In this document: piece after piece, positions 6,735 through 54,120 of the stretch
Layout of the letters: each line of letters opens with the position of its first letter
Position numbering within the stretch: the stretch's first letter is position 1
Assembly (NCBI GenBank): GCA_039000515.1
Contig: JBCFYV010000001.1
Span: 16,717,928 to 16,781,927 of the forward strand
Direction: 5' to 3'
DNA: 64,000 bases
Origin: Timema cristinae
Lineage: Eukaryota; Arthropoda; Insecta; Phasmatodea; Timematidae
Program-made: the position numbers and the translations under genes
The notes under the pieces: model-generated
The model's database searches: none
The model's input: only the letters and a program-made list of their open reading frames with translations
What the model was told of the DNA's origin: nothing

Positions 6735-6766
<32 letters not shown>

Positions 6767-15700: not shown

Positions 15701-18700
15701 AGGTCGTGGTCAGCCAATAATTTCAGGGTGGTTTGGTGGGCACATCTCCCAATTGCCGGACGCAAGAAAAAATTATAAATTATAGACAGTTTTAGAAGCT
15801 ATCTGAAGTGTTTTTTATGGCAACATAATCCCATAACTGCCGAAGGCTAGGAAATATTCTAAATATTAAACCCCTTTAGAAGCTTTCTAAAGTGTTTTTA
15901 TGGCAACATAGCTTCATAACTGCTGGAGGATAGAACAAATTCTAAATATTAAACCCTTCTAGAAGATCTATAAAACGTTTTTTAAGGTAACATATCCCCA
16001 TAACTGCTGAAGTCTTGAAAAATTATAAATATTAAAACCCCTAGAAGCTCTCTGAAGTGATTTTTATGGTAACACAGACCACTAATTTGTACTTGTACCT
16101 ACATTTTGATATTGTCTGTACCATAAATAAAGCCATATACATTTTGTTAATAAAATTTCGTTTTTTTTTAACCCCCTAACCCCCCCTGACTACGGACTTG
16201 CCTATCTGTGGACCTCCCTAAGGTTGATGCCCGTACCAATCCCAAACACCACCCCTTTTATACCCTTGGGTACAGGGTACTTTGGTTAGGCCATGGCCCC
16301 AAAAGAGGTAAGCGACTCACGAAAACTTGGAAAACGCTGCTGAATAGATTTAAGTAAACATTAATGATAGAAATTGAAACCTTTAGTTTCTTAGAATCTA
16401 AAACCAACATTTTACTACTTTAAAGATTTTTACCAAGCAGAGATATTTTCCCTTCGATGAGATATTGATTGGCATAATTTTATTTTACAGTTGTTCAAGG
16501 TTATAATTATGAGCAAGCAGTTTGATGCTCAATGTAAATTTTAAGGCACTCTTGACTCCCGACTGAAGAAGCAATGATCGAAAATGAACACCTTATACTC
16601 ACGTGAAGTTGACCCTCTTCTCCAGAACCTTCCAGATCTCACCGAACAGACCTCCCACCCGGTAGACCCCATCCGACCCTTGGACGAGGCCCACTATAGG
16701 CGAGGCATTGATGGAAGCCCCCTCGATGACCAACCCGTGCAAGTGCGGTCTCCTGTTGAACACGCTGAGAGTGGAGACCGTGACGTCATCCTCAGTGGCG
16801 TTCCACAGGCCGTACCGGAAAGTGCGCAAAGGTCCTCCACTATCCACGTGGTACGCCTCCATCAAGAGGACGTCGTCCCCGTCTGCAGCCGCCAACAGGA
16901 AGTGGCTGTTGAAGGGCAGGTACACGTGCTGCAGAAGATCCTCCAACGTCTGGTTTGGAGTCAGGAAGAGCAGCCAGCACGGGTACTGCAAGGTCGGCGT
17001 CGGAGACACGTCCTAGAGGAGAGAGAGCAGAGCATTCCGTGCCAGAACTGGCTATTAGCAGAGGTGGACTAGGGAACACCCGTTTATGTGGTCTAGTCAC
17101 TATCGCAATAGTCTGGATTGTCAATTATGGGGATATCTGGGTTTAAATCCTTGTTAGGTATAGTGAGGGTGGTTTTTCCTAAATGTTTTCCACACTACCT
17201 CCACGCATATGTGGGTACACTTCCTCCTTTCTAACACACTATCGTATTTAATACATATGTGCATCGTCCAGACGGTTAGTAAGACGTGGTGCTTAGAAAA
17301 AACAAATAACAGGATGAGGAGGGTGGACCTTAGTGAAACACTTTGTTTTAAATCCTGGGAATATCATAAAACAGTATAGACCCGATTATCCGAGGTTAAC
17401 GGGATCAAGACGGCCTCGGATAACCAAATACTCGGATAATAGGATCGATCTAAAATACACTACACGAAATTTTGAACGGACTAGACTCTCACAACTTTCA
17501 AATAAATCCCGATAGATCTTTAAGCCACGGCTTTAACGCTCAGCGAAAGGCAACTGACTGGACCAAGTCAAGGGATAATACGGAACCTCAGATAATCGCG
17601 ACTCTACGTTTCTAGGTGCTTGTAGCTTTGTAATGTTACACATAAAAACTAAACTTTATTCAAAACTGAAATGTAAGGGAAAACTTCAAAATATATACGA
17701 GGGGTTAACACTCCTGACTGGGTGTCTTGGGCGTCTTTCGATTATATGCACTGAAAAGTTGTTATTTTAATCAACAATTCGGGGTAGGCCTATTAATTAG
17801 ACCTTTAGGAAAGTATTTGTGAATTCCCTTACTCTCCTCTTCCTAACCTTTCTAGTACCTTAGTGAGACGGGAGGACACAAATTGAAACATTGTTTGAAA
17901 TATATAAAAAACGTTGACATGTACAACATTTGTTTTAACCTCCGTGTTCACTTTTAGTTGAAATTTATACTCTGTAATAACCTTCAGCCTCAAATTTAAT
18001 ACTTTTACCTTACACGTTTCCACTATGGCGTAACTTATAATATAAGGTCATAGTGTAATCAGTCAAGGTAAGACTGATATCTTGCTTGGTTTCACTATGG
18101 CGTAACTTATAATATAGGGTCATAGTGTAATCAGTCAAGGTAAGACTGATACCTTGCTTGGTTTTACTATGGTGTAGTTTATAAGATATGGTCATAGTGT
18201 AATCAGTCAAGGTAAGACTGATACCTTGCTTGGTTTCACTATGGTGTAGCTTATAAGATATGGTCATAGTGTAATCAGTCAAGGTAAGACTGATACCTTG
18301 CTTGGTTTCACTATGGTGTAGTTTATAAGATATGGTCATAGTGTAATCAGTCAAGGTAAGACTGATACCTTGCTTGGTTTCACTATGGCGTAACTTATAA
18401 TATAGGGTCATAGTGTAATCAGTCAAGGTAAGGCTGCTACCTTGCTTGGTTTCACTATGGCGTAACTTATAATATAGGGTCATAGTGTAATCCATCAAGG
18501 TAAGACTAATAACTTTCAGAGTAGGCCTAGTGTACATATTATTATTATTAGCACCGCGTCTTAATACCCGTTCGGGTTATACGCACTTACGCTAATGTGT
18601 AATGGTAGGGTAATTGTGAGATGAAATGGAGGACCTACAGTTTAACGTGGAATCCGAACCACGGTGGAGGCCTGGCTAGTATAGATAAAATAATCATCTC

Positions 18701-24222: not shown

Positions 24223-27200
24223 CTGGAAGTTGGGAACATTAAGTCAGGCGAGTTACAATTTGGGGACTTAGGCTAATGTGGGAGATATTTTATGAATATT
24301 TATTCCACCAGAATAAGAATATCATTAAATATGTATGCTTGAAGTCCACTTTTTCGAAACGAATGGTCTTACACACTACTTTCGCTTTACAACATCCATA
24401 CAATGAGTCATACAGGCTCTTTTATTCTTAAAACTTTTAATATATCTCTTTTTCACACATTCGTCTACAATATCTAGTCACGTGTTAAATAGCTACCCAT
24501 TCCTTTTCATCCACACAATCTACCTTCATATATTAGCTTCGTCTATCAATCGACATTCCTCGGTCCATTGGTGCATTTTATCAAGATAAATGGATAGCAT
24601 ATATGTTGTGTGCGTGTCTGGTTTACATCACTCCTAGCCCATTTTGTGGAAATATTAGCCAGTACTAATAGAGAGTTGCCTGGGGAACGCCCGAATATAT
24701 TAATAGTACATGCTTTACTTGGAGGCTCTTTCCATTTCCCGATTAGATGATGTAAAGGGGTGTTTATAGTGAGTAAGAGGGAGTGAAACCAGTAAAAACT
24801 CATAAACCTAACTTAAGCTTAATTAAGTAAACTCTGGTGACAATTGAGATAATTTACATTTCAGGAAATATACCCAAGGTGCCAGCCGGGAATCGAACCC
24901 GGAATCCTCAAGTTCGTAGCCACGTGCGTTGACCACTATAACACGAGGTTATATTAAAACTGCTACATTTCAGGATAAATGAGGTTTTCATATGAACAAG
25001 AAAAAAAAGGAGTCATATTTGAAGAATAAATTGTGATGCTTTTGGTGAATTAAGTCAAAATAAAATCAAGACTAAAACCACACTTATTTGCTCTAAAAAA
25101 ATCACAAAATTCAATTATTATGTTCTCAGCGTTTGGCCAACTTACTGGTAGTTGATGACACGAAGGTAGGGACTGCTCTTTGAAAGAACTATCCCAAGGA
25201 ATGATGCATAGTTCATGGATATAGGTGTTATGATCTTACAGTCGAGATCTTTTAGATGTCCCAAAGAATGGAAAGCTGACGTGAAAAAGGCGTACTTATC
25301 TTTCTGGCACAGACGAGCTAGGCCTTTCAAGGTCGAACGAGGCAAATTATGTTTATTAGGTAGTAAATACTTTGAGTAAACTTCTTGGAGTAAGCTGTTA
25401 GTTGAATCCTGTGAACAGTCATGAGGATTAACATTAAAATAAAACTAAATAGGATATTTAAACTAAGCAATGCCCTTTTGTCATGATAATGGGTGTTTTT
25501 AGATATACAATTGTTGCGTCACCAGGCTGGTTTATTGAAATTGTTATTTTTTATAAAATGTATCCATTCAATAAGAATTTGTTCAGTATAGTATTATTTT
25601 TACAAATTTTTTGTATATTATTATCTATGACTATTCAAGATGTAAAAGAACGCATTCCATGGATAATAAATACAAAAGGAAACACATGAATTGCTAGTAC
25701 TGGTCCGCTTTAATAATCTTTGCTATGGCCATTGGTTTGTACAGAATGCGATTACAATAGTTGTTTGGGTAAATGAATAACAATATTTTTTAAATCAGTT
25801 GTTTAGCTGTTAAACAATTATTACACAGATGGCTATTATTGATTCTGGTTTTGTTTAGTTGGCTTTTATCATTTTCTCATAGACAAGTATTATATATATA
25901 ATGCTTTTTAAAAAAAACACTCTAGTGTTGTCAATTGGAACCAGATTAAAAATCTATAGTAATAGTATATTATGTATAGCATCTAATAATTTTATAATAA
26001 TATACTACTACTATCCAAGGGGTAGTATAATATATTAATCAACGCATTCTTTAAATGTTATGGAAAGGTATGCTAGTTAATATTCGTATTATTACAATTT
26101 TTATAACCAAACACATGTATATAAAAAAACTCATAACATTTAGCTTCATTATATATGTTTGTTTCAATCAAATTAATAAAATGAATTGTTTGTTTGTCAT
26201 GAGCAAAGGTCTGCACTTTTCAAAATCCGTGGTCCCTTTGTATGATTATATGATCCTCGAAGCCGTAACATTTAAAAAATTTAATCAGATATATTTAATT
26301 AATTTAGAACTGGGTGGGAAACAAATCGGCTACGGGAAACGCAAGGTCTAAAGGCACTAACTTTAAAGTTACCTTCCACGTACAATAATTAAACTAAAAA
26401 CATTTTCCCTGGTAGCGCTGAGTGCTTCAACCGTTTACAAAACATGTTTTTTCCGACAGTTCTTGAATATGTGTCATGAACATGGAGGAATTTGAATGGA
26501 AACTTTTTAAATGGAGACAAAAAGTCCTTTTCATTTCCTAGATATGCATATGACAAATATTAAATAAATATTTAGGTTAGTTAAATAAACAAAAAATATC
26601 TCTCAAAGCAAAGTTTTATTTATTTAAGGCAAAAAAAGATTTTTTAAAAATTACCGCGTCTTACTACCTGTTCAGATTATACGCAGCTGTATTAATTACA
26701 CTAATTAGTAAGGGATTCGGATGGTTGAATATAGAGGAAATTTACCCGTGTTTGCCTGTAGAGAGAGTGGAAAATCACCCTCAGTACACCTGACTTTGTT
26801 TTTGGCATTAAAACTGTAAAACAACGAATCTCAACTCTCATTTCTTTCCACTTTAAGCGAAAAAACCGAAGGTTGGTTTTGTTGTGATTTCTATCCACCG
26901 GTAATACCTTCGGCTGGTTAGTGCTGCCTGCACCATCTGGTATCCCATTTACTAAAGGATTTTAGAAAGAAGTGTGGTGGCTCTCCGTTACCTTTCACAC
27001 CGAATTTCTACGAGCAGCGCGAAAGTGCCTTCAGCCCACCTTAAGACGACCACGTGTTGAACTTTTTTTTTTGGGGGGGGGGGGACTCTCGTTACCTTGA
27101 AATAGCTGAACTCAGCAGAATTTTCAGAACCTCGAACTCAAACTGTCCGTCTTGAATCATCCCTTCAAGGTCAGTGAAAGGTGGGACGATCTTCTGTTTG

Positions 27201-30200
27201 GCCAGGAAAGATATGAGCGCAGCGGAGTAGGCGACAGCACGATGACAGCTGTCAGATATGTTGTCATATGGACAGTGCGACATGACAGCGAACGGGGAGG
27301 GCTGTAACAGCCTGCAGGAAAGGAGGATAACATTGAAGGAGCGCCTGCGTGAAATACAAGATTAAAAAAACAACTCTTATTCAAATTTGAATACTTGCTA
27401 ACCAACTAGAATGGAATCTATATAACTTATTAAAAAAAAGTTTCAAATCGAATCTGAATTGTATAATTACTTTTTATCCGATTTAAATTATTATTACTAT
27501 TAGTATTTAGCAGCGCGTCTTACTACCCGTTCGGCTTTAAATATTAATTACGCTAATGGATTAGGAATTGTGAAGGTTGAATTAGAGGAAGGGAACCCGC
27601 ATTTGCGTGGAGGGAGAGTGGGAAAGCCATTTAGGAAAAGCCCCCCCAGTTCACCCGACCGAGATTCGAGCCTAGATCTCCCTGTCCTCAGCAGTCAAAC
27701 TCAACACGACTAGCGCGTTAACTAAATACGCCACCGAGGGCGGGTAAGATTCAAATTGAATACTAGGGCTAAATAATACAAATGGACATATCTGATAGAT
27801 AGCAATAGTTATTAGATCTATTTTAACGTATTCATACTTTTTACTTTTTATGAATAATATTAATGCTTATAAAATAACGCTAATAATACAGCAAAGCGTT
27901 ATCAATGTTGACCATATAAAAATATATTTGTATTTTATAAAAGTTTTTTCAAATGTTCATTCATAAGATTTTTATTTTTACAGAATATGTATATTCAAAT
28001 TGAGTCTAATATAAAAAAACCACGGTCATTAAACTATCAGTAAACTGTTGTATATGACGCCTCGGGTATTAGGACGGTTCACTTAGTGCTATCATTTGTT
28101 TGGAAGAGATAGTCAACAAGCCCTCGTTATTTTTGTTTTTTTGAATAATTAATTATTATTATAACTACTCTGAAACACATCAATTTCTATGAGCAGGGCA
28201 AATAATGATTTTTTGCGATCTTCCTTAAAGGTTAAATTATTCAAAGGTTTGACATGAAGATTAAATCCCGAATTAAATTCCATAGAATCTTATAATAAAT
28301 ATGTTTAAATTTTAAATTTAGAATTCAATCCAAATATTTCAAGATACAGAATCAGTACTTCAACTATATAATTGTATTTTTAAATTTCATTTTCATTTAT
28401 CTAAGGTATTAAAGTTCACGTATAGAACCGAGGAATTATATTAGACGAGAATTTCTACGAGCAAGAGCGAAAAAAAACTACCAATTTTGATGTAAAAGTA
28501 TTTTCACATAACTTCCAGGGTTCTTTTACATACCACAATCGACTTGTGATCAACGGATTTACTTCCCCTACAAAGAAGTTGCGCTACGGATTTTTAATCG
28601 CTGAAGAAAAATCCTTTGGCCTTCACTGGTTTGAACCCAAGAACACCGTGTCCTGAGGTGAGCACTTTAACTAAGCGCATCGAAGTCGACTCTTATAAAT
28701 ATAACGTTCCATTAAACTAAGTTATAATCTATTTTTTTGACAGGAGGCAAACTACACTATCAATCTAACCTTGTGACAAAAGGCAAACGTACCTACCATC
28801 TAACCTTGTGGACAAAAGGCAAACTACACTACCATCTAACCTTGTGGACAAAAGGCAAACTCACTACCATCTAACCTTGTGGACAAAAGGCAAACGTCAC
28901 TACCATCTAACCTTGTGGACAAAAGGCAAACTACACTATAATCTAACCTTGTGGACAAAAGGCAAACTACACTACATCTAACCTTGTGGACAAAAGGCAA
29001 ACTCACTACCATCTAACCTTGTGACAAAAGGCAAACGTCACTACCATCTAACCTTGTGGACAAAAGGCAAACGTACTCTACCATTTAACCTTGTTGACAA
29101 AAGGCAAACTACACTATATCTAACCTTGTGGACAAAAGGCAAACGTCACTACCATCTAACCTTGTGGACAAAAGGCAAACGTCACTACCATCTAACCTTG
29201 TGGACAAAAGGCAAACGTCACTACCATTTAACCTTGTTGACAAAAGGCAAACTACTACTAATCTAACCTTGTGGACAAAAGGCAAACGTCACTACCATTA
29301 ACTTTGTGGACAAAAGGCAAACGTCACTACCATTAACCTTGTTGACAAAAGTCAAACTACTCTACCATCTAACCTTGTGGACAAAAGGCAAACTACACTA
29401 CCATTAACCTTGTTGACAAAAGGCAAAGTACACTATAATCTAACCTTGTGGACAAAAGGCAAACTCACTACCATTAACCTTGTGGACAAAAGGCAAACGT
29501 ACTACCATTTTAACCTTGTGGACAAAAGGCAAACGTACTCTACCATTTAACCTTGTTGACAAAAGGCAAACTACACTAAATCTAACCTTGTGAACAAAAG
29601 GCAAACGTCACCTACCATCTAACTTGTGGACAAAAGGCAAACGTCCTACCATTAACCTTGTTGACAAAAGGCAAACTACACTACATCTAACCTTGTGGAC
29701 AAAAGGCAAACGTCTCTACCATCTAACCTTGTGGACAAAAGGCAAAACTCACTACCATTTAACCTTGTTGACAAAAGGCAAACTACACTAAATCTAACCT
29801 TGTGGACAAAAGGCAAACTCACTACCATTAACCTTGTGGACAAAAGGCAAACGTACTTACCATTTAACCTTGTGACAAAAGGCAAACGTCACTACCATTA
29901 ACCTTGTTGACAAAAGGCAAACTACACTATAATCTAACCTTGTTGACAAAAGGCAAACTACCTATAATCTAACCTTGTGGACAAAAGGCAAACGTACACT
30001 ACCATTTAACCTTGTTGACAAAAGGCAAACTCACTACCATTTAACCTTGTTTGACAAAAGGCAAACTACACTATATCTAACCTTGTGGACAAAAGGCAAA
30101 CGTAAAACCATTACCTTGTGGCAAAGGAAACTACACAATATCTAACCTGTGAACAAAAGGCAAACGTCACTACCATCTAACCTTGTGGACAAAAGGCAAA

Positions 30201-33200
30201 CTACACTATAATCTAACCTTGTGGACAAAAGGCAAACGTCACTACCATCTAACCTTGTGGACAAAAGGCAAACTACACTATAATCTAACCTTGTGGACAA
30301 AAGGCAAACGTCACTACCATCTAACCTTGTGGACAAAAGGCAAACTACACTACCATCTAACCTTGTGGACAAAAGGCAAACTACACTACCATCTAACCTT
30401 GTTGGCAGAAGGCTCCAAGAACGTAGAGAAAAGTTTCTTTCATACAGAATTTCTCAGGCGTCTCAATTTCCTGGTTCCCTATCCGTTTCCAAGGCGGTGG
30501 AGAGCGGACAGATAGACTGCGATGACCAAGATGGTGCTGAACAGGGTGAGCCATAGTCCCAAGGAGAAGGGTGACATGAAACTGGTCCAATCCAGCTCGT
30601 CTTGGGAGGGGGCTTTTATCATCACCGTGTATCTAAATACAGGAATAAATAGTGCACTGGATTACAAATATAACGATATAAAACATAAATGTTAACGTGG
30701 GAGTGTAGAAAATGTGAGAAAAGATTAATATTTTTGCAGTTTTTATAGCAACATTTTATTTGCTCTAAATAAATAAAATATTTCTTTAGTACTAATAGAG
30801 TTTAATTTCCTCACACAGTGATATCAACAGTGTTGTATTCCCACCATGCGCATAGTGGCATTAGATGAGTAACTTCCTAAATGAAGAGAAAAAGTTGTCA
30901 TTAATTTCCAGGACACGCTTGACAGATATTCAACAACTGTTGTTATCAACATGTTAAGAAAATGAAACTATATGCTTTTACTGAAGAATTATTTGATTTA
31001 TTTTGACCAAAAAACTTTATTATATAAAGTCTGCAAAACACTGGCCTTTTCTTGTGTCTGCTACATTCCCAACGTAAATATAATAAAACAATATTAATAC
31101 TGCAAATAGCATAATATGTACATTATTCACTGGTGGCGTGGGGGTTTTTAGTTTATACTCTGCTCCATTCTTTACAGAAAGGTGATCAGATTCTTTGTGT
31201 TAAGTTAGGTTAGGTTAGGTTTGGTTAGGTATGACAGGTCCGGTTAGTTACATGAAAATATTTATGGCAGCCATCAACCCCACTAAAATAGGCCTTGTTG
31301 CAAACCTTACTACAATAAATCTTTTGGAGTAATATTAAGTTTATTATAATACATTCCTTTAACTGCGTATATAGAGCATAGCGTTGTAACAAAGCTCCGT
31401 TCTTCAAGACTATTTCCTCCCCCCCTCCTTTTGAATATTAACTTGCTGTTTTCTTCAACTAAACTTAGATACAAACAAACCATTCTTTGGACTTGGCCTA
31501 GTAAACCTCTCACATTACCATCCGAGCATCATTACTAAGCGAGCGTATAGCCCGAACGGGTAGTAAGACGCGGTGCTAAATAATAATAATAATAATAATA
31601 ATAATTACTAAACACCGAGATTATGAAAGGCATTTGAATGGCAACAGCTCTAACTTGCAAAGTGACTTTTAAGCAGAAAGTGAAACGTTTGTCATTCTAA
31701 TGATCTTCGTAGTCTCGGTTAGTTAAAAATGTTAATAAAAAAAAAGAGGGGTACTAATGAGATGATGATTTAGATTAAGTATGTAGGAAAAATACCGCAA
31801 AGAAGGCCCAGAAAAAGATTGGAGAACCATATAATGGAAAGTGTGTAAGTGAGAGGAGAAGATTGGAAGTTATTAACGATGTTGCTACATGGTCATTTCG
31901 AAGTTATTTTGCAAAGTGGGTTTCATCTTAACTTGACGCATCCAAGCAGTCTAAGGGTTCGGCCAGACTGCCAAGCGTGCGAGCAAGCGCGCAAGCGACT
32001 GGGTGGCCAAACTGGCGAGCGCGCGAGCGAGCGAGCGCGTAATTAGCGGACCCTAGTTAGATTATTATTAGCACCGCGTCTTACTACCCGTTCGGGTTAT
32101 ACGCACTTACGCTAATGTGTAATGGTAGGGTTATTGTGAGATGAAATGAAGGACCTACAGTTTAACGTGGAATCCGAACCACGGTGGTGGCCTGGCATTC
32201 CCTACATTCACAAGATGTCTTGTCAGAGGTGAAGGAAGGGTTTGGAAATAAGATAAATCTGTGCCGGGACCGAGGGTTGAACCCCGGCTGCCAGCACAGA
32301 AGTCTGACACCTTACCCCTAGACCACTAGGTCACCCCCCCCCCCCTCCCCCCTAGTTAGAGAAGATGTCTCTGTCAAACACACTTAGTACATCTCTGCTC
32401 CTCGAAAATTCTTACAGAAAATATTGTGTATTTATAAAAAAGAAAAAAGTAGAAGTGCATCCAATTAATAAATTGAGAAATGCGTATGGTACTGTACTGA
32501 AGTGTTTTAAAATCAGATTTGCCGCACCAGTGGCAGAATGGTGCGTTGCACTCGATAACTTTTGACTAGGAGGCAAAGGTTCGAATCTTGGCTCAGTGAA
32601 CTGAAGGTGATTTTTAAAACTTATTTATTGTTGTGGTTTTTTCATACTCTCTCCAAACTAATGGTGATTCTTATTTGTAAAGGCCTACTTTGATTATAAT
32701 ATTGAAGTATTTTAACATATCGGGTTTACATATATACATTATATTATTTATGGTCTTACCAATTAAATTAGGCCATTAATAGCAAGTGTGTTAAACCTAT
32801 CACTGATAGAAAAAAGTCAAATATCATGTCAAAATGAGAAGTTTCCCCAGCACTCAATGAACCAACATACAATAATATTGCCTAGCGCCTGTAAACTAGA
32901 CTGTACCGGGTCGAGCGCGCGCGCTTGAAAAATAGAACCAGTTCTATCTTTCAAGCGCGCGCGCTCAGTCGCTCGCGCGCTCGCTCCAGTGTGGCCACCC
33001 CCCATTACAACCAATGTGTTCTATTTTATATTTTAGTCGCTCGCTCGCGCGCTCAGTCTGGCCGTACCCTAAGCACTATCACACTTAGAAACTAAAGTAA
33101 GAAATAAAAAGAGGGAATAAAATGAGTATTTCACCTATGAGAGCTCTAATTTATTTGTTGATAACAGTTCCCCTCTTCCACTAACGAGTATAAACACCCA

Positions 33201-36200
33201 CTCAACTATTTGCGCCTTGATATCATTGACTACAATTTCAAAATAACCTTTTTTATTGTTTCCTGTACTAGACTGACATATGCTACCACGCAATTTTTTA
33301 ATCTACGTCCTGGCAGAAAGATTCCTACAGGACATTTTTTTTAATTAACCAAATAGCCTGAGCTCTGGACGATTTAAAAATAAAATGCGTTCACAAAAAT
33401 CTACTTTAAGATAAAAAAATAATTTTGTGATACTGTAAGACTGGTTTTAGTCTCAATTATATAATATATCTTTAAAATTCTCCGAATACAACGTAAATAC
33501 ATTAAAATGGAAAATCTTATTTAGACTTACCATAACGTCACAGGCAAGCAATGTCCTTAAAGGAGGAAGGATGATGGAAGAATAGAGGAAGACATAGACA
33601 TTTTTACTAAACTGACAATGCAACAGGCTGGAAACAGTTGATAATAATTATTATAATATTGCGTGTCTGTGCTACATCATTCGTAGGCCAATTTGTACAA
33701 ATATTTGCCAGTACTAAAGTATTGTTACCCAGGGGACGCCAAAATGTACTGATCGTACATCCTTTCCGTTGAGGTTTTTTTCCATGTCCCGATGAGATGA
33801 GGGTGATGGTGATAGTGAATATGAGGGTGATAATGAATATGAGGGTGATAATGAGTATGAGGGTGATAGTGAATATGAGGGTGATAGTGAATATGAGGGT
33901 GATAGTGAATATGAGGGCATGTAACGAGTGTAAACCCTTAAAACTAACTTAAGACTAATAAGAAAGCCCAAGTGACAATTGGGGTAGTTCTCCTTTCGGG
34001 AAAAATACCCAAGGTACTATCCAAAGATCGAACCCGGGATTTTTGAATTGATATTCAGGTGCAATGACTACTACACTACGAGGCCGTTTGATGATGATTA
34101 TGATGATGACTTAGAAATAACCCTTCACAAAACAAAATCTAAACATCAAGAAGTGTCGACTCCCAAACATGTTTCCTACTTGGTAGCCAGAAGCGGCACG
34201 GTGAAGTCGACCACGTTAAGTCGCAAGCTGGTCATGGCGAACTCGTTGATGGCAACCTCCACTTCGTGTCTCTGAATCATGCCTATCATCCCGTTCCAGG
34301 AGCCATGTCTGTGCGTCTTGTTGAGGCTGTACCTGCCCAAGACACTCCAAGAATCGTTCTCGAACATTCCCCACGAACCGTCGCTAGGTTTTCTCCATGT
34401 GGTGCTGAAGTCAAGAGAGATCAGTTACATGAAACGAATGTTTGGTGGGAAGATCTTTGATTAATATAGTAAACGTATGAACGTTATCAAAGAATGCTAT
34501 TTCATTTGAAATATGAACCCTAGTCTTAAACTATTTCTTGGCACGGATGAGGTGTAACGATGTAGTCAGATTGTTACAGTCCAATTTTCAAAGGAATGTC
34601 CTTATCTGAGAATTAGAAAAGTTAGTAGATTTACTTTCATACGTCAAGTAAAGTAATCGGTAACTGTCACTTTTAAAATATATCAACAGTGCCTGAGATA
34701 ATAGTAATAATATAGAAAATACATTAGCAATGTTGATTTAAAAAATAGATTGTTTGTAAGATCCTGACTATGAATATTGGAATGTACACCAAGTAGCTTA
34801 TTTGATAGTTGTTCGAAATAATTTTTTCCTGGAAAATTTATGTAATATAATTTCCCCCTTTTCCCCCTTGTAGCCTCCATATGTTCATATAAGGGTGTAT
34901 GTATAACCGTTGACTCAAAGCTAATTAAAAAATACCTCTTGTTAGTAAGAATTTGGATAAAAACCTGAATGGTCCATTTGGTAAAGAAGTAGGAGCATGG
35001 ATGCCCATAAATGGATAATAATAGGGGCTTCAATCTACCCTCCCTTTATCACGTTGAAATATTATTAATTTTTATGAAAAAAATCAAATTATGTGTTTGG
35101 GATTTGTCTGCAATTTGCTATATAACAACTTTGAATAGTCAATATACAAGTTAACAGATAAAGATAATAAAACGTAGATTTCCTCCCATTCCCTCTTCAA
35201 CCGCTTTATTTTCATTTTGTTCTGTTCAATAAACTTGTGAAAAATATATTGTTTCTTTTCAATAGGTTCAGCTACAAATAAATTTTAGATTTGTTAATTT
35301 TTCAGAAACTTTTTTTTGTTGTTGCGAAAATTAGCTCATGAAACTTATAGCTCAGAATTATATTTTGATGCTCTAAAATTCCCTCCACAAGTTTAAATTC
35401 CTGAAATTTTCTCTCGAGAAAGAAGGGGGAAGTTCCACACCCCCAGCAGAATGAACACCAATCTGCACCCCTTTGGAAAAATCTAATGCTCACCCTTGAA
35501 TAGGGGTAAATGTGTATCATCCTATTCACTCTTCCATACTTTTGTCTAAAATATATAATTTATCATATTTCTTACTTAATATCAGCACATTGTCTAAAAG
35601 ACACAAGTGTCAGACGATACTCACGTGAAGTTGATTCTTTTCTCCAACAAACCCCAGACCAGACCGAAGTACCCGCCAACATCCAAAACACCATCATCTT
35701 TCTCCCGAACATTCGTGAAAGGAGGCTCCTGAAAAAACAAAAGTTAATACCAACGGGAATCAAACACGGGACTTTTGGCGACACGTTGTAATTCTCTACA
35801 TAGAGCTATTCAGGAATCGTTCATACTTGGAGTTATTCTTCACTCTGTGATAGAAGTGTGAGATCTTTGAATCCTAGAGCTATCATATATCACAGCCACT
35901 GGGGACCCCTATTATATATATATATTATTTAATTTGAGATATTTGACGTGCACTTTCTGAACAAGCTCACCAACCACTGGTGTAGTGGTCAAAGCTCCTG
36001 GTCGCTGACCTAGAAATACGGGTTCAATTCCCAGCTAGTACCAGAGGATTTTTTTTTCTCGAAGGAGGAATAATTCCCATAGCCATCAGTGTTAGGTTAA
36101 TCAGACTTAAGTTAGGTTAAGATCTTCATAAGATTCACCCCGTCATACTCACTATCATCATCTCCTCGCCTCATCGGGACTTGGAAAGATTCTCCACGGA

Positions 36201-38976
36201 AAGGACGTCAGTACCGGCTAATCTTTCCACAAACTCAGCTATAGACGGATGTAACCCGACAGGTCATTATAATTATTATTATAAACGAATGATTACATCC
36301 GCACACGACTTATAAACTAACATAAATCTAGAACAAGACAACAACCAACCCCCGCCATTAATTCATCGTTGTGGAAGGTGAAACCCACATGATACATTTC
36401 TCAGCCTTGCCGGGAATCAAACCCAGGACACTTAGCTTAGTAGGAAGACAATTTACCGTCTGAGTTGAGGCATCAGAAGTGAATTTTTTGCTGCCGTTCG
36501 TAAAATACTAAATTGTACAGAGTATACGATATATTCGGGATAAAGATGAATGATTCCTGGATAGTTCAGTGACGTGAATTTACATGCGGAGACAAATATC
36601 TCTGACTCTTTACCGTGTACAGGTGTCATTTTTCAACTATTTTTAATTTTATTGAATTGTAAGATGGATAGAGTTATGGTTGTAGCCATAACTTAAGTTA
36701 GTTTCAAAATTCAAATTTATAAATTACTTCAAGTTTTTAATCTGTGAAAAATATATATCCAATGAACGTCCAGTGATGCACTTTAACATTTGAAATTGTG
36801 TTTCTATGAGGTTCAGGTTTATATCAACTTGATAGCTCACATGGACAACCGCCGCTCTGATGTTGTGGCCATTCAACTGTTTCCGTCGGTTGTACAAGGA
36901 ACATTTGCACCACGTCAGACCGGTCGCAGCGCTCCAGTGGCCAAACGGGGAAGTGTTGAGAGAGGAGTCTTGGTCCACCCTGTATATCTCGGTGAGAGTA
37001 CGTGATCCCTGAACGACCGGGCGACTAGGAACTTACAGTTGAAAGGCACGTAGATGTCGGCGAAGAATTCCTCCAGAGGTGTCGCATCTGGTAGGAAGAG
37101 AAACCAGCTGGGTCTGTGTATCTTACCCGTCGTGGACATTTCCTGACGAGAACATGGATATGTTTGTATTAACTTTCCATTGCGTCTCACTACCTATTCA
37201 GACTAACCAGCCCCATGGTGTGCACCTGGCTACGATCCTAGAGGTCCCGAATTCGATTCACAGCTGGTACCTTGTTTATTTTCCTCGGAAGAGGAATTAC
37301 CCCAAAAGGTCACCAGGTTTTGGCTAGTTAAGCTCAAGTTAGGTTTAAGCGTTTCCACTGGTTCCACACTCTCATACTCACTATCATCATCACCTCATCT
37401 TATCGGACATGGAAAGAGCCTCCACGGAAGTACATTTGGACGTCCCGTGGACAACGGTACATTAGTACGGGCTAATTTTATCTACAAACTGGGCCCCGAA
37501 TGTTGTAGCCCAGTCGTACATATTATACTATATCAATATATTTTTTTATATTATTATACTACTATACGTTCAGACTAATGGGCTAGGGATGAAGAAGGTA
37601 CCATTTAGAATAAAATGTCTTAATTTCCGTGAGAGAGAGTGGGAAACCGTTAAAGAAAAAACACCTTAAGTAGACTCAACTGAGATTCGAACCTCGAGCT
37701 CCCCATCATCAACAGTCTACTCTATGCGAGAGTGGCGCGTTAGACCACGTGACCACTGAAGCGGGTGTTTTCAATACTAACCGCAACAAAACACATTTTA
37801 TATTTTCTAACAGGTACTTTCAAATTTAAAATTGGACTGTACACACCTCTAGGAAAGTCCTGGTGGCGTTGTCCGCGGACAGGATGACTAGAAGAGGAGG
37901 TTTCCTAGGACACTCTCCGATCTCTTGCAACTTGCTGAACTGTTGGACGGGGAACAGATGTCACCTGCACGTCTTTCTCCTGCAGCACCAGGGTTGCCCT
38001 CTTCACCACCGACACGACGTCGTAGCCTGAGTCACATACATCCCCCCCAGAGGTCGGTGAATACCTGCCTTGTCATCGAGAGCACCAATACGCCAAAGGT
38101 TATGGGTATGTGAACGTCGGGTTCGAATCCCAGTTATGCATTTCAACCTGAACATCAGTAGCGAGGATACTTGTGGTCAGATGGTTACGGTTTTTCTTCA
38201 GTACGTCTTACTACCTGGTCAGGTTATACGCATATATGATAATTACTTTAATGAGGTAAGGATGGGGAAGGAAGCCTTTTAGAGGTAATCTACACGCATT
38301 TTCGTTGAAGAGAGGGGAAAACGTCTAGGAAAAATACCCTAGGTAGACTCTACCGGATTTCGAACCCCGAGCTTCCTGCCATCATCAGGACAGTCTTAAC
38401 ATGAGCATGACCTCATATACCAATTGGTCGTTGAAGCGTGTATATACACATACATAGATTAATTACGCTAATAGAATAAGGATGAGAAGGTCGAATGTTA
38501 GAGTAAATGTACCCACATTTGTAATAATGGTGATTGGGAAAACATTTAACAAAATTACACCTTCAGTACACCAAATTAGGTTTCGAATCCCGGTCTACTG
38601 TTTCCGACAATGCAGTATTACACGATAGTGACGGGTTAGTCCACGTGACTACCGATGCTTGTCAGGAGGTGTCGGGTGCAAATAAGACAGATTGTCTTAA
38701 TGTAAGAGAATCTTGGGGTTGAACCACCGGATACAAAAAAAAATCATTTATTACAAACGATGTTCATGCTTGAAATATTACTAGATAATTTGTATCAATT
38801 TAATTTATAAGAACATTACCTAAGATACCATCCTGAGACTGAAAACAAAAGAATGACACAACTTCTGTGGTAGCTGTGGTATATGGCTGGAATAACGTCC
38901 GGATGGTCCGGGTTGATACCACACTGCCATTACATACTAAGAATATCAAGAGGATTATTATCACAGATTTCATCAT
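23994..38976 (-). CDS. IR-B: divergent ionotropic receptor, 9 exons, single-base frameshifts
   Basis: Complete IR from signal peptide to stop. Exons in order: 38829-38976, 37847-38026, 36841-37142, 35625-35728, 34180-34404, 30398-30632, 27096-27311, 25146-25408 and 23994-24222. It shows the S1 signature [10 protein letters not shown] and FAMTSLR with the conserved arginine, LGAFCQQG at the pore, [10 protein letters not shown] in TM3, SPYLRVINY in S2 and a TM4 run ending LTCLVVEM. All splice sites and phases fit. Exons 2, 3a, 5 and 6 contain one or two single-base indels. No in-frame stop arises by substitution. IR-A is its closest relative here. Expected in chemosensory neuron dendrites; ligand unknown. 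Confidence 0.9.
24360..24560 (-). mobile_element. Non-LTR family N1, 3' fragment
   Basis: Matches 12560-12760 (TTTATTCTTAAAACTCTTAA type sequence, CACACATTCGTCTACAA, CTACCTTCATATATTAGCTT). Lies in IR-B intron 8 of transcript order. Confidence 0.6.
24590..24955 (-). repeat. SINE family C copy
   Basis: On the minus strand a tRNA-like head with TATAGTGGTCAACGCACG and B box GGGTTCGATTCCCGG, a body with GGGTATATTTCCTG, then GAAAGAGCCTCC-type sequence and a tail near GCCAGTACTAATAGAG (plus-strand ATTAGCC complement). Confidence 0.75.
25146..25408 (-). CDS. IR-B exon 7, S2 ligand-binding lobe
   Basis: 263 bp, phase 0 to 2, intact, acceptor TGTTCACAG and donor GTAAGT. It encodes [19 protein letters not shown], then [13 protein letters not shown], then [13 protein letters not shown]. 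Confidence 0.92.
25409..27095. other. IR-B intron 6, no gene seen
   Basis: AT-rich, with a SINE B fragment at 26650-26790. Open frames at 25483-25689 and 26055-26351 on the plus strand are AT-rich and unsupported. A T10/G12 run at about 27063-27084 lies 10 bp downstream of the exon 6 donor. Confidence 0.55.
27096..27311 (-). CDS. IR-B exon 6, TM3, two one-base deletions
   Basis: It encodes [20 protein letters not shown], then in the next frame [19 protein letters not shown], then after a second shift NSAEFSYFK. Shifts fall at about 27230 and in the T run at 27121-27124. Length 216 against 218 in IR-A fits two deletions. Donor GTAACG. Confidence 0.88.
27505..27745 (-). repeat. SINE family B, near full length
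   Basis: Tail CAGCGCGTCTTACTACCCG, body GGGAAAGCCATTTAGG, complemented B box CCGAGATTCGAGCCTAG, ending at ACGCCACCGAGGCGGG-like head sequence. Confidence 0.85.
28440..28695 (-). repeat. tRNA-like SINE, family F
   Basis: Matches 18841-19105 in reverse: GTTTGAACCCAAG B-box complement, AGTTGCGCTACGGATTTTTA, and ACCACAATCGACTTGTG. Confidence 0.65.
28745..30397. repeat. 36-bp minisatellite, about 45 units, donor-derived
   Basis: Contiguous 35-37 bp units of the form CTAACCTTGTGGACAAAAGG plus CAAACTACACTACCAT or CAAACGTCACTACCAT, in IR-B intron 5. On the transcript strand each unit contains GCCTTTTGTCCACAAG followed by GTTAGATGG. The true exon 5 end reads GCCTTCTGCCAACAAG followed by GTTAGATGG. 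The array therefore starts at, and looks like copies of, the exon 5 splice junction. Single-base losses within units are frequent. Confidence 0.97.
30398..30632 (-). CDS. IR-B exon 5, TM1 and pore, one-base deletion
   Basis: It opens [17 protein letters not shown]1 runs through [17 protein letters not shown], and it ends [13 protein letters not shown] base is missing in GGAAACGG at 30483-30490 (235 bp against 236 in IR-A and IR-C). The donor GTTAGA is weak, and the exon end is the founder-like unit of the adjoining minisatellite. Confidence 0.9.
31200..31232 (+). repeat. Short TTAGG-like interstitial repeat
   Basis: About five imperfect TTAGG units (TTAGGTTAGGTTAGG, then one TTTGG). TTAGG is the usual insect telomere repeat. 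Too short to imply a former chromosome end. Confidence 0.6.
31520..31610 (+). repeat. Shared SINE tail with (AAT)n
   Basis: GCGTATAGCCCGAACGGGTA, then GACGCGGTGCTAAATAATAA and further AAT units. The body upstream is not recognisable. Confidence 0.75.
32061..32349 (-). repeat. SINE family A, full length with 10-bp target duplication
   Basis: On the minus strand: A box region CTAGTGGTCTAGGGGTAAGG, B box GGGTTCAACCC, middle GTTCGGATTCCACGTTAAAC, tail ending GACGCGGTGCTAATAATAAT. It is flanked by CCCTAGTTAG at 32051-32060 and 32350-32359. It lies inside the PIF/Harbinger-like element. Confidence 0.92.
32521..32615 (+). repeat. tRNA-like SINE head
   Basis: GTGGCAGAATGGTGCGTTGC and B box GGTTCGAATCTTGG. 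It resembles a degraded tRNA sequence; the body is not recognised. Confidence 0.5.
33640..34085 (-). repeat. SINE family C with internal 18-bp expansion
   Basis: Head on the minus strand with TAGTAGTCATTGCACC and B box GGGTTCGATC. The internal CACTATCACCCTCATATT unit is repeated six times at about 33785-33920. Another part matches CCTTTCCGTTGAGG. Confidence 0.75.
34180..34404 (-). CDS. IR-B exon 4, S1 ligand-binding lobe
   Basis: A 225-bp exon, phase 2 to 2, intact. It encodes [35 protein letters not shown], then [20 protein letters not shown]. The donor is GTAGGA. Confidence 0.92.
35625..35728 (-). CDS. IR-B exon 3b, start of S1
   Basis: A 104-bp exon after TTTTTTCAG, phase 0 to 2, donor GTGAGT. 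It encodes [13 protein letters not shown], then [14 protein letters not shown]. It corresponds to the end of IR-A exon 3 and IR-C exon 3b. Confidence 0.88.
35970..36290 (+). repeat. SINE family C, near full length
   Basis: tRNA-like head GGTGTAGTGGTCAAAGCTCC, B box CGGGTTCAATTCCC. The body has TCGAAGGAGGAATAATTCCC, TTAAGTTAGGTTAAG, CATCGGGACTTGGAAAGA and CTCCACGGAAAGGACG, ending in an ATT-rich tail. Confidence 0.82.
36841..37142 (-). CDS. IR-B exon 3a, amino-terminal domain, one-base deletion
   Basis: It encodes [20 protein letters not shown], then [13 protein letters not shown] after a frame change at about 36998-37003, then [15 protein letters not shown] and ends AAVVH before donor GTGAGC. 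Length 302, one short of a multiple of three. Confidence 0.85.
37195..37535 (+). repeat. SINE family C copy
   Basis: Head GGTGTGCACCTGGCTACGAT, B box CGAATTCGATTCACAGC, body CTCGGAAGAGGAATTACCCC and GGACATGGAAAGAGCCTCC, ending near ATGTTGTAGCCCAGTCG. Confidence 0.8.
37560..37765 (-). repeat. SINE family B copy
   Basis: Body GTGGGAAACCGTTAAAG, complemented B box TGAGATTCGAACCTCGAG, head GACCACGTGACCACTGAAGC. It lies 80 bp from IR-B exon 2. Confidence 0.8.
37847..38026 (-). CDS. IR-B exon 2, amino-terminal region, one frame change
   Basis: It follows a GTATGTGACTCAG acceptor. It reads [19 protein letters not shown], then changes frame near 37957-37963 and continues [16 protein letters not shown] and [15 protein letters not shown] to donor GTGTGT. 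Length 180 bp against an expected 179 (or 182). Confidence 0.75.
38195..38670 (-). repeat. Two tandem SINE family B copies
   Basis: Copy one (38195-38420) carries CAGTACGTCTTACTACCTGG and TACCGGATTTCGAACCCCG. Copy two (38445-38670) carries GGTTTCGAATCCCGGTC and GTCCACGTGACTACCGATGC. Both are read on the minus strand, in IR-B intron 1. Confidence 0.75.
38829..38976 (-). CDS. IR-B exon 1, signal peptide
   Basis: ATG ATG at 38976-38971 starts [17 protein letters not shown], a clear signal peptide. The exon ends in phase 1 at GAT G before donor GTATCT. The first of the two ATGs is taken as the start. Confidence 0.75.
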
Positions 38977-41267
38977 CAATCATAACTGCATACCTCAGGA
39001 TTAACTAGATTTAGATAACACTGATTATAATATGGAATATTGTCTTTAAAACACAGCGCGTCTTTGTCTGGTAAGCTGAATCACTTGCAATATGTTGATT
39101 TTCTTTTTTTTTAAATAAAATGTTCTGCCGTATAGACACTAGACATAAGCACGCCATTTGTTAAGTACAATTTTGAATATTTTTTTTTTCTTCACGTTTA
39201 ATTTTGTTAGTTACGTTTATTCGAATAAGAACACATCCAAGTTTAAATTATCTAAATGTCTTGAATCTTGGAAATAGTTATAGTTGGGAAGTAAGTACAA
39301 GTATTTTACATGTAATTATGATACGTAAATAAAGACATGTTAACCTGTGTCATTATTTGACAAAGAGCGAGTATGATAAATATTCTCACTTGGACTAATT
39401 ATATTTCTATTAATAGATGAATAATGCCACACCTAGATCAATGTGTAATTAGAAGTTCAAGATAAGGTAGGAAACAGGTTCATATTTTGTTATTTCGTCT
39501 CCCATTGTTCTAACTCTGTGTGTTGATTAATTTATTATGCTGACTTACAGAGCTAATCAATCATAATTAAAATACTAAACTGCACGATGTCATTTGGATG
39601 ACATATTAGTATTGATATGTTATTAATAAAGACAGTCACAAGAGCTTGATCATCACCAACTCGGCAACAGTCTGGCGTGTTATTGCCGGGGCTAAATAAC
39701 TTCGCTTGACCGGACTAAATAGTAGAACTGTTTCCTACCATTCAGTGTCAAATTTAACTTTCAAAACCAGTAAACAAGGTCAGATTTTAGATAAGAAGGA
39801 ACATTTTTTGATAGTTACAAAAGCTACTAAAACAATTTGCTTATGTTCATACGTCAAATCATGTGAACTGAAGCTGTCAATTATGATTGATAATATTAAT
39901 CATCCTTAGAGCCCGTCTCACACGAGGTACAGCACATAACCTAGGTAAGTAATACAGCTAGAACCAGACGTCGCATCTTCGTGACCAGTTAAAGAATCTT
40001 ACCAATTTTTTTTAAAAGAAAGTACTATTTCATTGATCCAAATTTATTTGCTGTAAATTGAAGAGCGTAGAAATACCACACTTCGATGCTATTTTTTTTG
40101 TTTCGAGCGTAATCTTTATTATAATATTCCAGTTAATCGTTTCTTAAGAACTGCGAGACATTTTTATACTACATTTTTAACAGTCAGAATGGGCACACTG
40201 CCCCTACCCTTACATTAATAAATGCTTGATTAAATATCTTAATATTATCTTTGTAAATTTAAATGACACCTAATATTTGTATACAAGGTGATTAGAGAAA
40301 TCATAGCTCTCTCTAAAGAAAGATGTATTTACCGCACACATACACACAAAACCTAACTACTGAACTCTTTTTCGAAAAATGTTACGTCCTCCCATCCATT
40401 ATAATCATCACCTTCGAATGTAAAAATGATATTTTTCCAGGAAAAAAAGTGTTTTTTTTTAAGTCGCAATCGATTGTTTATTACGATACACTTAATTAAA
40501 AACATCCACAGTTAGTGCTAAATGAAGCCTATTACTGTACACTCAAAATAAAATAAAAATATGATAAAATATTCTTCTCTACAAAACATGTAGATTCGTC
40601 CACAGCGATTATTATTATTATTGTTTTAGTTAAAACTAGTTAAGAGATGCCTTAACGATTTCTTTTAATGTTTCTTGTTGATATAACCACTGAAGAAATA
40701 AACCAATTAAGTCAAATACTTTTTATTTTATTTTCAGTGTTCGTACTCGAAGCGTGTTTCGATAATAGCCCAACTAGGCTTTCTACCCTGTTCGTGCCGT
40801 CAGAAATAACAGATCAATATCAACACATACTTACCTTGACACGTTAAGAACATGCCACGATATAAACACACAATGAAATGTAAACCTGTTTGGTAAATAA
40901 TTTTTTATTATCTGTAAACATATTAACCCCCTATGAGGCTGTTGGAGTTTATACTAATAGTGGTATTTAATATATAATTTATGAATAAACTGATTATAAT
41001 CTGCACATGACTTTCAAATCAATAATTCGATTCCAAGGCTAGACAAACATCCTGGTCCCCCAATCGTTAATTAACCAAGAGTATCGAGGTCCTGATCAAA
41101 CTTGATCTTTTGGCAGCTTAACAGTCTGTGTGTTCAAAGATAAATGTGTCGACGAATCTTAATGACATTTGACAGGGATATTATTTGGACTTAAGTCAAA
41201 CGATATACAGTTTGTACTGTAAAAAGTTTTTCAATCCAAATATCACGTTCAATAAGACAGCCACTAA
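38977..41267. other. Spacer upstream of IR-B, no gene seen
   Basis: AT-rich intergenic DNA that must include the IR-B promoter. The only recognisable repeat is one isolated, diverged 68-bp satellite unit at 39907-39972. An open frame at 39706-39909 has no recognisable content. Confidence 0.6.
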
Positions 41268-42340
41268 CTTAGGTAGGTAATACAGCTAGAACCAGACGTC
41301 TTAAGAGCCCGTCTCACGCCACAGATAACACCTAGCTTAGTTAGGTAATACAGCTCGAACTAGACGTCTTAAGAGCCCATCTCACTCCACAGATAACACC
41401 TAGTTTAGGTAGGTGTTACAGCTTGAACTAGACGTCTTAAGAGCCCATCTCACTCCATAGATAACACCTAGTTTAGGTAGGTAATACAGCTTGAACTAGA
41501 CTTCTTAAGAGCCATCTCACGCCATAGATAATACCTAGTTTAGGTAGGTATTACAGCTTTAACCAGACGTCTTAAGAGCCCATCTCACGCCACAGATAAC
41601 ACCTAGTTTTGGTAGGTAATACAGCTTGAACTCGACGTCTTAAGAGCCCGTCTCACGCCATAGATAACACCTAATTTAGGTAGGTAATACAGCTTGAACT
41701 AGACTTCTTAAGAGCCCGCCTCACGCCATAGATAATACCTAGTTTAGGTAGGTATTACAGCTTGAACTAGACGTCTTAAGAGCCCATCTCACGCCACAGA
41801 TAACACCTAGTTTAAGTAGGTAATACAGCTTGAACTCGACGTCTTAAGAGCCCATCTCACGCCATAGATAATACCTAGTTTAGGTAGGTATTACAGCTCG
41901 AACTAGACGTCTTAAGAGCCCATCTCACTCCACAGATAACACCTAGTTTAGGTAGGTATTACAGCTTGAACTAGACGTCTTAAGAGCCCATCTCACTCCA
42001 CAGATAACACCTAATTTAGGTAGGTAATACAGCTTGAACTAGACTTCTTAAGAGCCCGTCTCACGCCATAGATAATACCTAGTTTAGGTAGGTATTACAG
42101 CTTGAGCTAGACGTCTTAAGAGCCCATCTCACGCCACAGATAACACCTAGTTTAGGTAGGTAATACAGCTTGAACTCGACGTCTTAAGAGCCCGTCTCAC
42201 GCCATAGATAATACCTAGTTTAGGTAGGTATTACAGCTTGAACTAGACGTCTTAAGAGCCCGTCTCACGCCACAGATAACACCTAGTTTAGGTAGGTAAT
42301 ACAGCTTGAACTAGACTTCTTAAGAACCCGCCTCACAGAC
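41268..42340. repeat. 68-bp satellite, about 16 units
   Basis: Contiguous units with GACGTCTTAAGAGCCC, TCACGCCACAGATAACACC and TAGTTTAGGTAGGTATTACA. The period measured from successive AGACGTC sites is 68. Variants (GACTTC for GACGTC, ATAATACC for ATAACACC) recur at intervals of three to five units, suggesting partial higher-order structure. Intergenic between IR-C and IR-B. Confidence 0.97.
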
Positions 42341-43610
42341 ACAGCCAAACAACTAAGACATGTTCAGAAAAAGAGATACAATAAATAGACCAGTAAAATC
42401 TTGGTCAGACCTAAATGTAAATAAATTTTGGTTCAAATTTGCTAAATAGTTTATAAGTTAGAATTGAAACACACATAAACACAATTGTCACGTTAGTATA
42501 TTTGATTGAAAAAAATAATTATGTTCTATGCTTGAACCACAAATTTGTGTTAAAAAGCAGCTCAACACTAGGGGTATTTAAATACTACTTTTTATTAGAA
42601 AAATATACCCAAAAGCGTCACCAAAAGTCATGCTTAGTTCTGGAATTGGGCGTTGAGTTAGAATACTCGTCAAATACACGAGGGTAAATTTTTCTCAAAA
42701 ACAAGTGCATATCTTTATTTTTTTAGTACAGTGTCTTACTAACCATTCGGGTTATAAGGTTACATCTTATTTTAATGATCCTTTTCACCCTTAATCCATT
42801 ATATTACATTGTCAATAATCCTGGTTCCAGGAGAGAAAAAAAACTTGACTTGTTTATTAAGATTTTCAACGAGATATTAGCGTCATATGTGGCCGTTTAT
42901 TCGCATGCTTAGAAGGAATGAATTTGCTGTACATATTGAACTTGAAAATTTGCTGAATGTCATGTCAACCTTACAACGAAAAGATAGGTCAGTTAATTCC
43001 CACAGTTAACACACTGAGATGCCATCTATATTGTACTTACATGACACTTTGTTTATTGTAAGTTTCGATCCGTACCCTCGTTTTAGAATAACAAAGACAA
43101 GCTTCATAAATGTAGGTCAAAATATTTGTCTTTGTTAATCGACGAGGGTAAATCACTCAAACATACAAAACCCAAGTTTTTCCATTTACATTTTGTTGTT
43201 GTCTGCACGTCTATTTAATTTAAATAGGTAGAAACATTTTTTGGCAGTTCTAAAAGTTATTAAAACAATTTTAATATATTCACACTTCAAGTCATGTGAG
43301 ATAGGACAGCTATCACTTGGGATTAATTTTATCAATACCTTATTAAAACTAATAGTAATAATTTAGTAAAATGAAATAAATGTTGACCGAAAAAAGGGGG
43401 GAGGGGGGGGGGGTTGCATTTGAAGAGTACAGGATAAAAAGCAGGAAACTCCAATTTGAACTCAAATAAAGTCAGTGCTACCATCTGTTAGACACTCATG
43501 AGATATTTCTAATACACTTTGACTCGATATTATGGTTAAAAGAGGTATCTGTTGTTTTTAAATTGATAATAATAAAAGTGTTTACTAGGGTTCTTACGAG
43601 GTTTGAAATT
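42341..43610. other. AT-rich spacer with one hairpin
   Basis: No gene is recognised. A stem-loop with ACCCTCG/CGAGGGT and ACAAAGACAA/TTGTCTTTGT arms lies at 43073-43150, and a G run at 43396-43414. Confidence 0.6.

Positions 43611-54067: not shown

Positions 54068-54120
<53 letters not shown>

What the first reader, a model, noticed from the sequence alone, without database searches (positions are those of the whole stretch)
28745..30632. Minisatellite built from a splice junction: about 45 donor-like copies beginning at the real 5' splice site
On the IR-B transcript strand exon 5 ends GCCTTCTGCCAACAAG followed by donor GTTAGATGG. Each 36-bp unit of the adjoining array contains GCCTTTTGTCCACAAG followed by the same GTTAGATGG. 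That is 22 of 25 positions shared, and the array abuts the exon with no gap. The simplest reading is that the exon-intron junction itself was amplified, giving one true weak donor and dozens of decoys in tandem. This could shift splice-site choice or extend the exon, since many units are multiples of three and stay open. I know of no described case for an IR gene. The functional effect is inference.
Basis: partly seen in the sequence, partly recalled or inferred. Interest (0 to 1): 0.85.

Follow-up and report, generated by a model that had tools for sequence, protein, structure and literature searches.

The report
Splice junction amplified into 47-unit minisatellite
In an insect chemoreceptor gene, the last 16 bases of an exon plus the first 20 bases of the following intron appear to have been copied in tandem about 47 times, giving one real splice site followed by dozens of look-alikes; the same kind of structure ("mirage") is known from lancelets, and this gene looks damaged, so a function is unlikely.

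Summary
On the minus strand, IR-B exon 5 ends at 30398, and a 36-bp minisatellite of 47 units (30397-28734) starts at its GT. The last 16 exon bases match the unit consensus at 13/16 and a CAA variant (10 of 47 units) at 14/16; they are the best of 124,538 16-mers outside the array. They encode a pore motif present in 33 of 45 fetched relatives, so copying probably ran from exon to array. One own-genome DNA search found the array only here. The functional half is weaker. All 47 units keep GT, and 28 of 46 downstream have the real donor's 9-mer, but in the receptor frame extension meets TAG at once. The donor scores between those of its two siblings. IR-B has seven single-base frameshifts in this assembly, so it is probably a pseudogene. 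The structure is a known kind: amphioxus "mirages"; IFI6 is a reported case of repeat donors being used. Verdict: a new member of a known kind, most likely a passive by-product. Searches for an array-free paralogue did not complete.

The parts
30398..30632 (-). IR-B exon 5 (TM1 to pore loop, ends ...GAFCQQ|G, phase 1), with one single-base frameshift inside; bounds from splice consensus
   Evidence: translation; with exon 6, matches to AMPA receptor chains, best E 2.9e-13; frameshift alignment
30398..30413 (-). exonic 16 bases inferred to be the seed of the unit (13/16 to consensus, 14/16 to CAA variant)
30392..30400 (-). inferred real 5' splice site AAG|GTTAGA
   Evidence: sequence; exon 6 continues in the right phase after its acceptor
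28734..30397 (-). 36-bp minisatellite, 47 units (32-37 bp); GT at the donor position in 47 of 47, the real donor's 9-mer in 28 of the 46 downstream units
28714..28733 (-). possible decayed remnant of a further unit (13/20); doubtful
27312..30397 (-). intron 5 of IR-B, 3086 bp by reading the acceptor TTTCCTGCAG, of which about 1.66 kb is array; inferred from splice consensus and homology
   Evidence: the script printed 3085, from a bound one base off
27096..27311 (-). IR-B exon 6 (CYSPPRSLSCR... to NSAEFSYFK), two single-base frameshifts; bounds from splice consensus
34179..34415 (-). IR-B exon 4 (ligand-binding part), no frameshift; approximate bounds

Best explanation
It is a 'mirage': a minisatellite grown from an exon-intron junction. 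A 36-bp segment (last 16 bases of IR-B exon 5 plus first 20 bases of intron 5) was duplicated in tandem and then expanded by slippage or unequal exchange to 47 units, lengthening the intron on its exon side. Splicing, if the gene is transcribed, most likely still uses the exon-proximal donor, and the array is removed with the intron. Occasional use of a downstream copy would add an in-frame TAG straight after QQG and give a truncated, probably degraded message. The gene itself is probably a pseudogene or decaying. Shown: anatomy, match, register, identical donor 9-mers, stop codon, frameshifts in this assembly. Inferred: direction and mechanism of expansion, splice choice, absence of function.
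For: The exon end matches the unit in register at the array edge and is the best of 124,538 16-mers outside the array. Against the CAA variant the exon differs only at two synonymous third positions (TTC/TTT, TGC/TGT; read). The motif is conserved independently of the array: FCQQG in 33 of 45 fetched relatives, and GAFMQQGC aligned in AMPA receptor chains. The one answered search of the 1.29-Gb own genome gave 6 matches, all at this array. The junction keeps phase 1 with exon 6. Precedent: amphioxus mirages spanning junctions, with regular splicing reported kept.
Against: Only 16 exonic bases carry independent signal; the match does not extend upstream (20 bases 13, 36 bases 18). Register-free matches of 13/16 or more are not rare (26). 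No orthologous or array-free junction was seen, so the direction rests on the protein motif. One search warns that very common words are skipped, so rarity is not proven. The exon-side units 1 and 2 equal the consensus exactly, so the exon-side edge shows no units intermediate between exon and consensus. No RNA data.
Confidence: 0.77

Rival explanations
1. Active decoy bank: downstream donors compete for U1, divert part of the splicing to stop-containing transcripts and so set the dose of IR-B protein according to array length.
For: 28 of 46 downstream copies carry the real donor's 9-mer, and extension hits a stop at once. IFI6 transcripts are reported to use two downstream repeat units as donors (passage in PMC4526556).
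Against: Seven frameshifts in the gene. Amphioxus mirages are reported not to disturb splicing. No RNA seen.
Confidence: 0.08
2. Unrelated intronic minisatellite: the array arose from intron sequence or came from elsewhere, and the exon resemblance is chance plus the shared donor consensus.
For: Only 16 bases are informative; 26 register-free matches of 13/16 or more were counted in the window, the best 14/16.
Against: In-register shuffles reach the match in 83 of 200,000 (consensus level) or 8 of 200,000 (CAA-variant level); 0 of 50,000 for shuffled 36-mers in any register. No second locus in the one genome search answered.
Confidence: 0.08
3. Assembly artefact: copy number and single-base differences (and the gene's frameshifts) are partly consensus errors of long reads across a repeat.
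For: Gaps exceed insertions in the array (40 against 12); units 1-6 have no gaps while units 7-47 carry all 40. The gene's frameshifts also lie in exons well away from the array.
Against: Variants recur in many units (TA at 7-8, AC at 14-15, A at 30). IR-A shows no frameshift in 253 aligned columns or in its open exon 5 of 79 codons. This could alter copy number but hardly create the array.
Confidence: 0.07

Closest known systems
Amphioxus 'mirages' (Adh3, globins BflGb6/BflGb9, TnC, PGBD5); PMC3087553 section 16 read in full plus passages, PMC3902484 one passage
   Same: Tandem repeats that span an exon-intron boundary, with splice signals in many units; minisatellite type.
   Different: BflGb6 has 6 or 3 units of 150-160 bp, and Adh3 units are 10-72 bp; here 47 units of 36 bp at a donor, in an insect chemoreceptor gene that looks damaged. 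There boundary units are less homogenised; here this holds at most for the far end (unit 47, 7 edits), while units 1-2 at the exon equal the consensus. Instability and RNA not tested here.
Human IFI6 (6-16) minisatellite with multiple splice donors (Turri et al. 1995: title seen in reference lists only, paper not held; use of two downstream repeat units read as a passage in PMC4526556)
   Same: Repeats at an exon's 3' end supply extra donor sites.
   Different: There downstream donors are reported used; here extension meets a stop and use is unknown. A shorter unit there is recalled, not seen.
Internal tandem repeats at exon-intron boundaries of human genes in segmental duplications (PMC2812944, passages)
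   Same: Minisatellite-sized repeats (on average 30-bp units) that can lie at exon-intron boundaries.
   Different: On average 4 repeats, in primate-specific paralogues, with transcription evidence examined and new introns proposed.

Membership tests
Mirage (minisatellite of an exon-intron boundary) | tandem repeat unit spans an exon-intron boundary | tested here: met
   unit = 16 exonic + 20 intronic bases, in register at the exon end; the exon boundary itself is inferred from homology and phase, not from RNA
Mirage (minisatellite of an exon-intron boundary) | many units carry AG/GT splice signals | tested here: met
   GT at the site in 47 of 47 units; AAG|GTTAGA in 29 of 47 including the real donor
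Mirage (minisatellite of an exon-intron boundary) | length instability between haplotypes | not testable with these tools
   one assembly only
Mirage (minisatellite of an exon-intron boundary) | regular splicing kept | not testable with these tools
   no RNA data
IFI6-type donor minisatellite | downstream repeat donors used in transcripts | not testable with these tools
   no RNA data; extension meets TAG
Insect ionotropic receptor gene (host of the array) | iGluR channel segment with TM1, pore loop, TM2/TM3 homology | tested here: met
   AMPA receptor chains, best E 2.9e-13; termite and cockroach receptors, best E 3.7e-79; but 0 Pfam families for four single-exon pieces
Intact ionotropic receptor gene | open reading frame through the exons | tested here: not met
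   seven single-base frameshifts in exons 1, 2, 3, 5, 6; assembly error not excluded

The most novel reading that the evidence does not exclude
A chemoreceptor gene whose output is tuned by a hypervariable bank of donor copies made from its own splice junction: most extra units add a donor with the same core as the real one, and each use yields a stop-containing transcript, so array length acts as a rheostat on receptor dose.
Probability: 0.06. Interest if true: 0.85.

Novelty: new member of a known kind. Interest (0 to 1): 0.42.

Why it matters
It suggests that junction-spanning minisatellites of the mirage kind also occur in an insect. It offers a natural test of how splicing chooses between an authentic donor and 28 copies with the same nine-base core, and it is an example of an intron lengthened by amplification of its own 5' end. 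No insect case showed in the listings of my literature searches. Those cover only open-licence papers and few word combinations, I opened only a few of the papers listed, and one search listed 15 of 32. The search that required 'insect' with four other terms returned no paper at all.

Tried and rejected
RNA structure as a function: z-scores 0.96 (exon 5 junction with first units), -1.34 and -1.26 (two stretches inside the array) and 1.06 (IR-A junction); 20 and 22 of 200 shuffles fold at least as well as the two array stretches, so there is no clear structure.

In-frame exon extension: rejected, stop codon at once.

Dispersed satellite: 0 exact matches to one 22-base pattern in viral and in bacterial/archaeal contig collections (weak tests for an insect repeat), and only the home locus in the own genome.

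Higher-order structure: neighbouring units are not more alike than shuffled ones (lag 1 P 0.80); lag 4 has P 0.04 among 7 lags tested, not convincing.

Sibling junctions: IR-A and IR-C exon 5 end CAAG|GTGACA and CAAG|GTGACT, with no array listed there by TRF, but they are too diverged to serve as an empty site.

Full report
What is there. The window is insect-like DNA from a 1.29-Gb genome of 7605 contigs, C1:16717928-16781927, with at least three ionotropic receptor (IR) genes on the minus strand: IR-C exon 5 near 50.5 kb, IR-B from about 39 to 25 kb, IR-A from about 17 to 4 kb (the assignment of exons to genes is by position and homology). The best named relatives of IR-B are from Zootermopsis, Periplaneta, Cryptotermes and Blattella, so the source is probably a blattodean (inference). 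One relative, P0001, is 85% identical over 23% of one query and 90% over 32% of another; its species was cut from the listing.

The array. TRF gives 28745-30413, period 36, 47.1 copies. My wraparound alignment gives 47 full units from 30397 down to 28734; 21 of 47 are 36 bp and 16 of 47 are 35 bp. The unit, read on the transcript strand, is 20 bases GTTAGATGGTAGTGTAGTTT plus 16 bases GCCTTTTGTCCACAAG. Exon 5 ends GCCTTCTGCCAACAAG and is followed directly by the first unit. The match is 13/16 to the consensus and 14/16 to a variant with CAA in place of CCA; CAACAAG stands in 10 of 47 units. Against that variant the exon differs at two third codon positions only, both synonymous (read). The match stops at those 16 bases: 20 bases score 13, 36 score 18.

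Chance and direction. Of 124,538 16-mers outside the array the exon end scores best, 14; none scores 13 and six score 12. Shuffling the unit's first 13 exonic-type bases reaches the consensus match in 83 of 200,000 trials and the variant's level in 8 of 200,000, and shuffling the whole unit with any register reaches 13/16 in 0 of 50,000. A looser scan, every register against every position, gives 26 matches of 13/16 or more, the best 14/16 at 14055-14070, so the position of the match is what makes it meaningful. The exon bases code for the pore-loop motif. FCQQG stands in 33 of the 45 related proteins fetched; 8 have another sequence at that site, one has ICQQG, and three gave no match to the pattern. 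AMPA receptors align GAFMQQGC there. A motif shared with relatives is unlikely to have come from the array, so copying probably ran from exon to array (inference). A search of the own genome with 401 bases of the array gave 6 matches, all at this array (the tool warns that common words are skipped and that no match does not show rarity).

Splice sites. GT stands at the homologous site in 47 of 47 units. AAG|GTTAGA occurs 29 times: the real donor and 28 of 46 downstream copies. On a frequency table recalled from memory the donor scores 3.39, IR-A's 2.52 and IR-C's 3.96; the variants AAG|GTTAAA and AAG|GTTAAT (8 and 6 units) score 0.07 and 1.5. So this is not one weak donor among better ones; 28 copies equal it in the nine core bases. 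If a later copy were used, the receptor frame reads ...GAFCQQG then TAG. The use of any copy is unknown because no RNA is available here. RNA folding shows nothing clear.

State of the gene. A frameshift-aware alignment shows seven single-base frameshifts in IR-B: two in exon 1, one in exon 2, one in exon 3, one in exon 5 and two in exon 6. Exons 3b and 4 and the 38 aligned columns of exon 7 show none. IR-A shows none in 253 aligned columns of three exons (one stop where the alignment runs past a probable exon edge), and its exon 5 is open over 79 codons; it was aligned to more distant proteins, so the comparison is not quite even. Either IR-B is a pseudogene or the assembly is faulty here. 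In the array, units 1-6 have no gaps and units 7-47 hold all 40, which fits consensus errors in the repeat but also ordinary divergence. In the German cockroach 393 of 897 IR genes are pseudogenes (passage in PMC6175461), so a broken IR would be ordinary. P0001 ends exactly at the end of exon 4, so the nearest relative gives no view of the junction.

Comparison. [quoted passage not shown] TnC and PGBD5 add cases (PMC3902484, passage). Human IFI6 is the reported case where downstream repeat units serve as donors (PMC4526556, passage; the 1995 paper is not held). Tandem repeats at human exon-intron boundaries are the subject of PMC2812944 (passages). The array meets the two structural features of a mirage that could be tested. 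It differs in the number of units and in lying in an insect gene that is probably broken.

Verdict. Real structure, well-supported origin, probably no function; a new member of a known kind. The open question that would raise its interest is whether the gene is transcribed and whether later donors are used.

Noticed in passing
1137-2062: A 926-bp stretch aligns to its own reverse complement at 90% (fold-back).
   Followed up: no
18016-18515: 72-bp array, 6.9 copies; its unit contains CAAGGTAAGA, a donor-like string, on the plus strand.
   Followed up: partly
41269-42344: 68-bp array, 15.8 copies; 15/16 matches to its unit lie at 39942-39964.
   Followed up: no
6531-6976: TACA repeat of about 114 copies close to IR-A exon 6.
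   Followed up: no
32061-32335 and 54111-54396: Two copies of an interspersed repeat, 86% alike; the string CGTCTTACTACCCGTTCGG stands near 32078 and, on the other strand, near 31555, perhaps a SINE.
   Followed up: no
34179-38937: P0001, a close relative of IR-B, ends exactly at the end of exon 4, perhaps because exon 5 was not joined in that gene model.
   Followed up: partly
28734-30397: Single-base gaps are absent in the six exon-side units and frequent further in, perhaps a trace of assembly polishing.
   Followed up: partly
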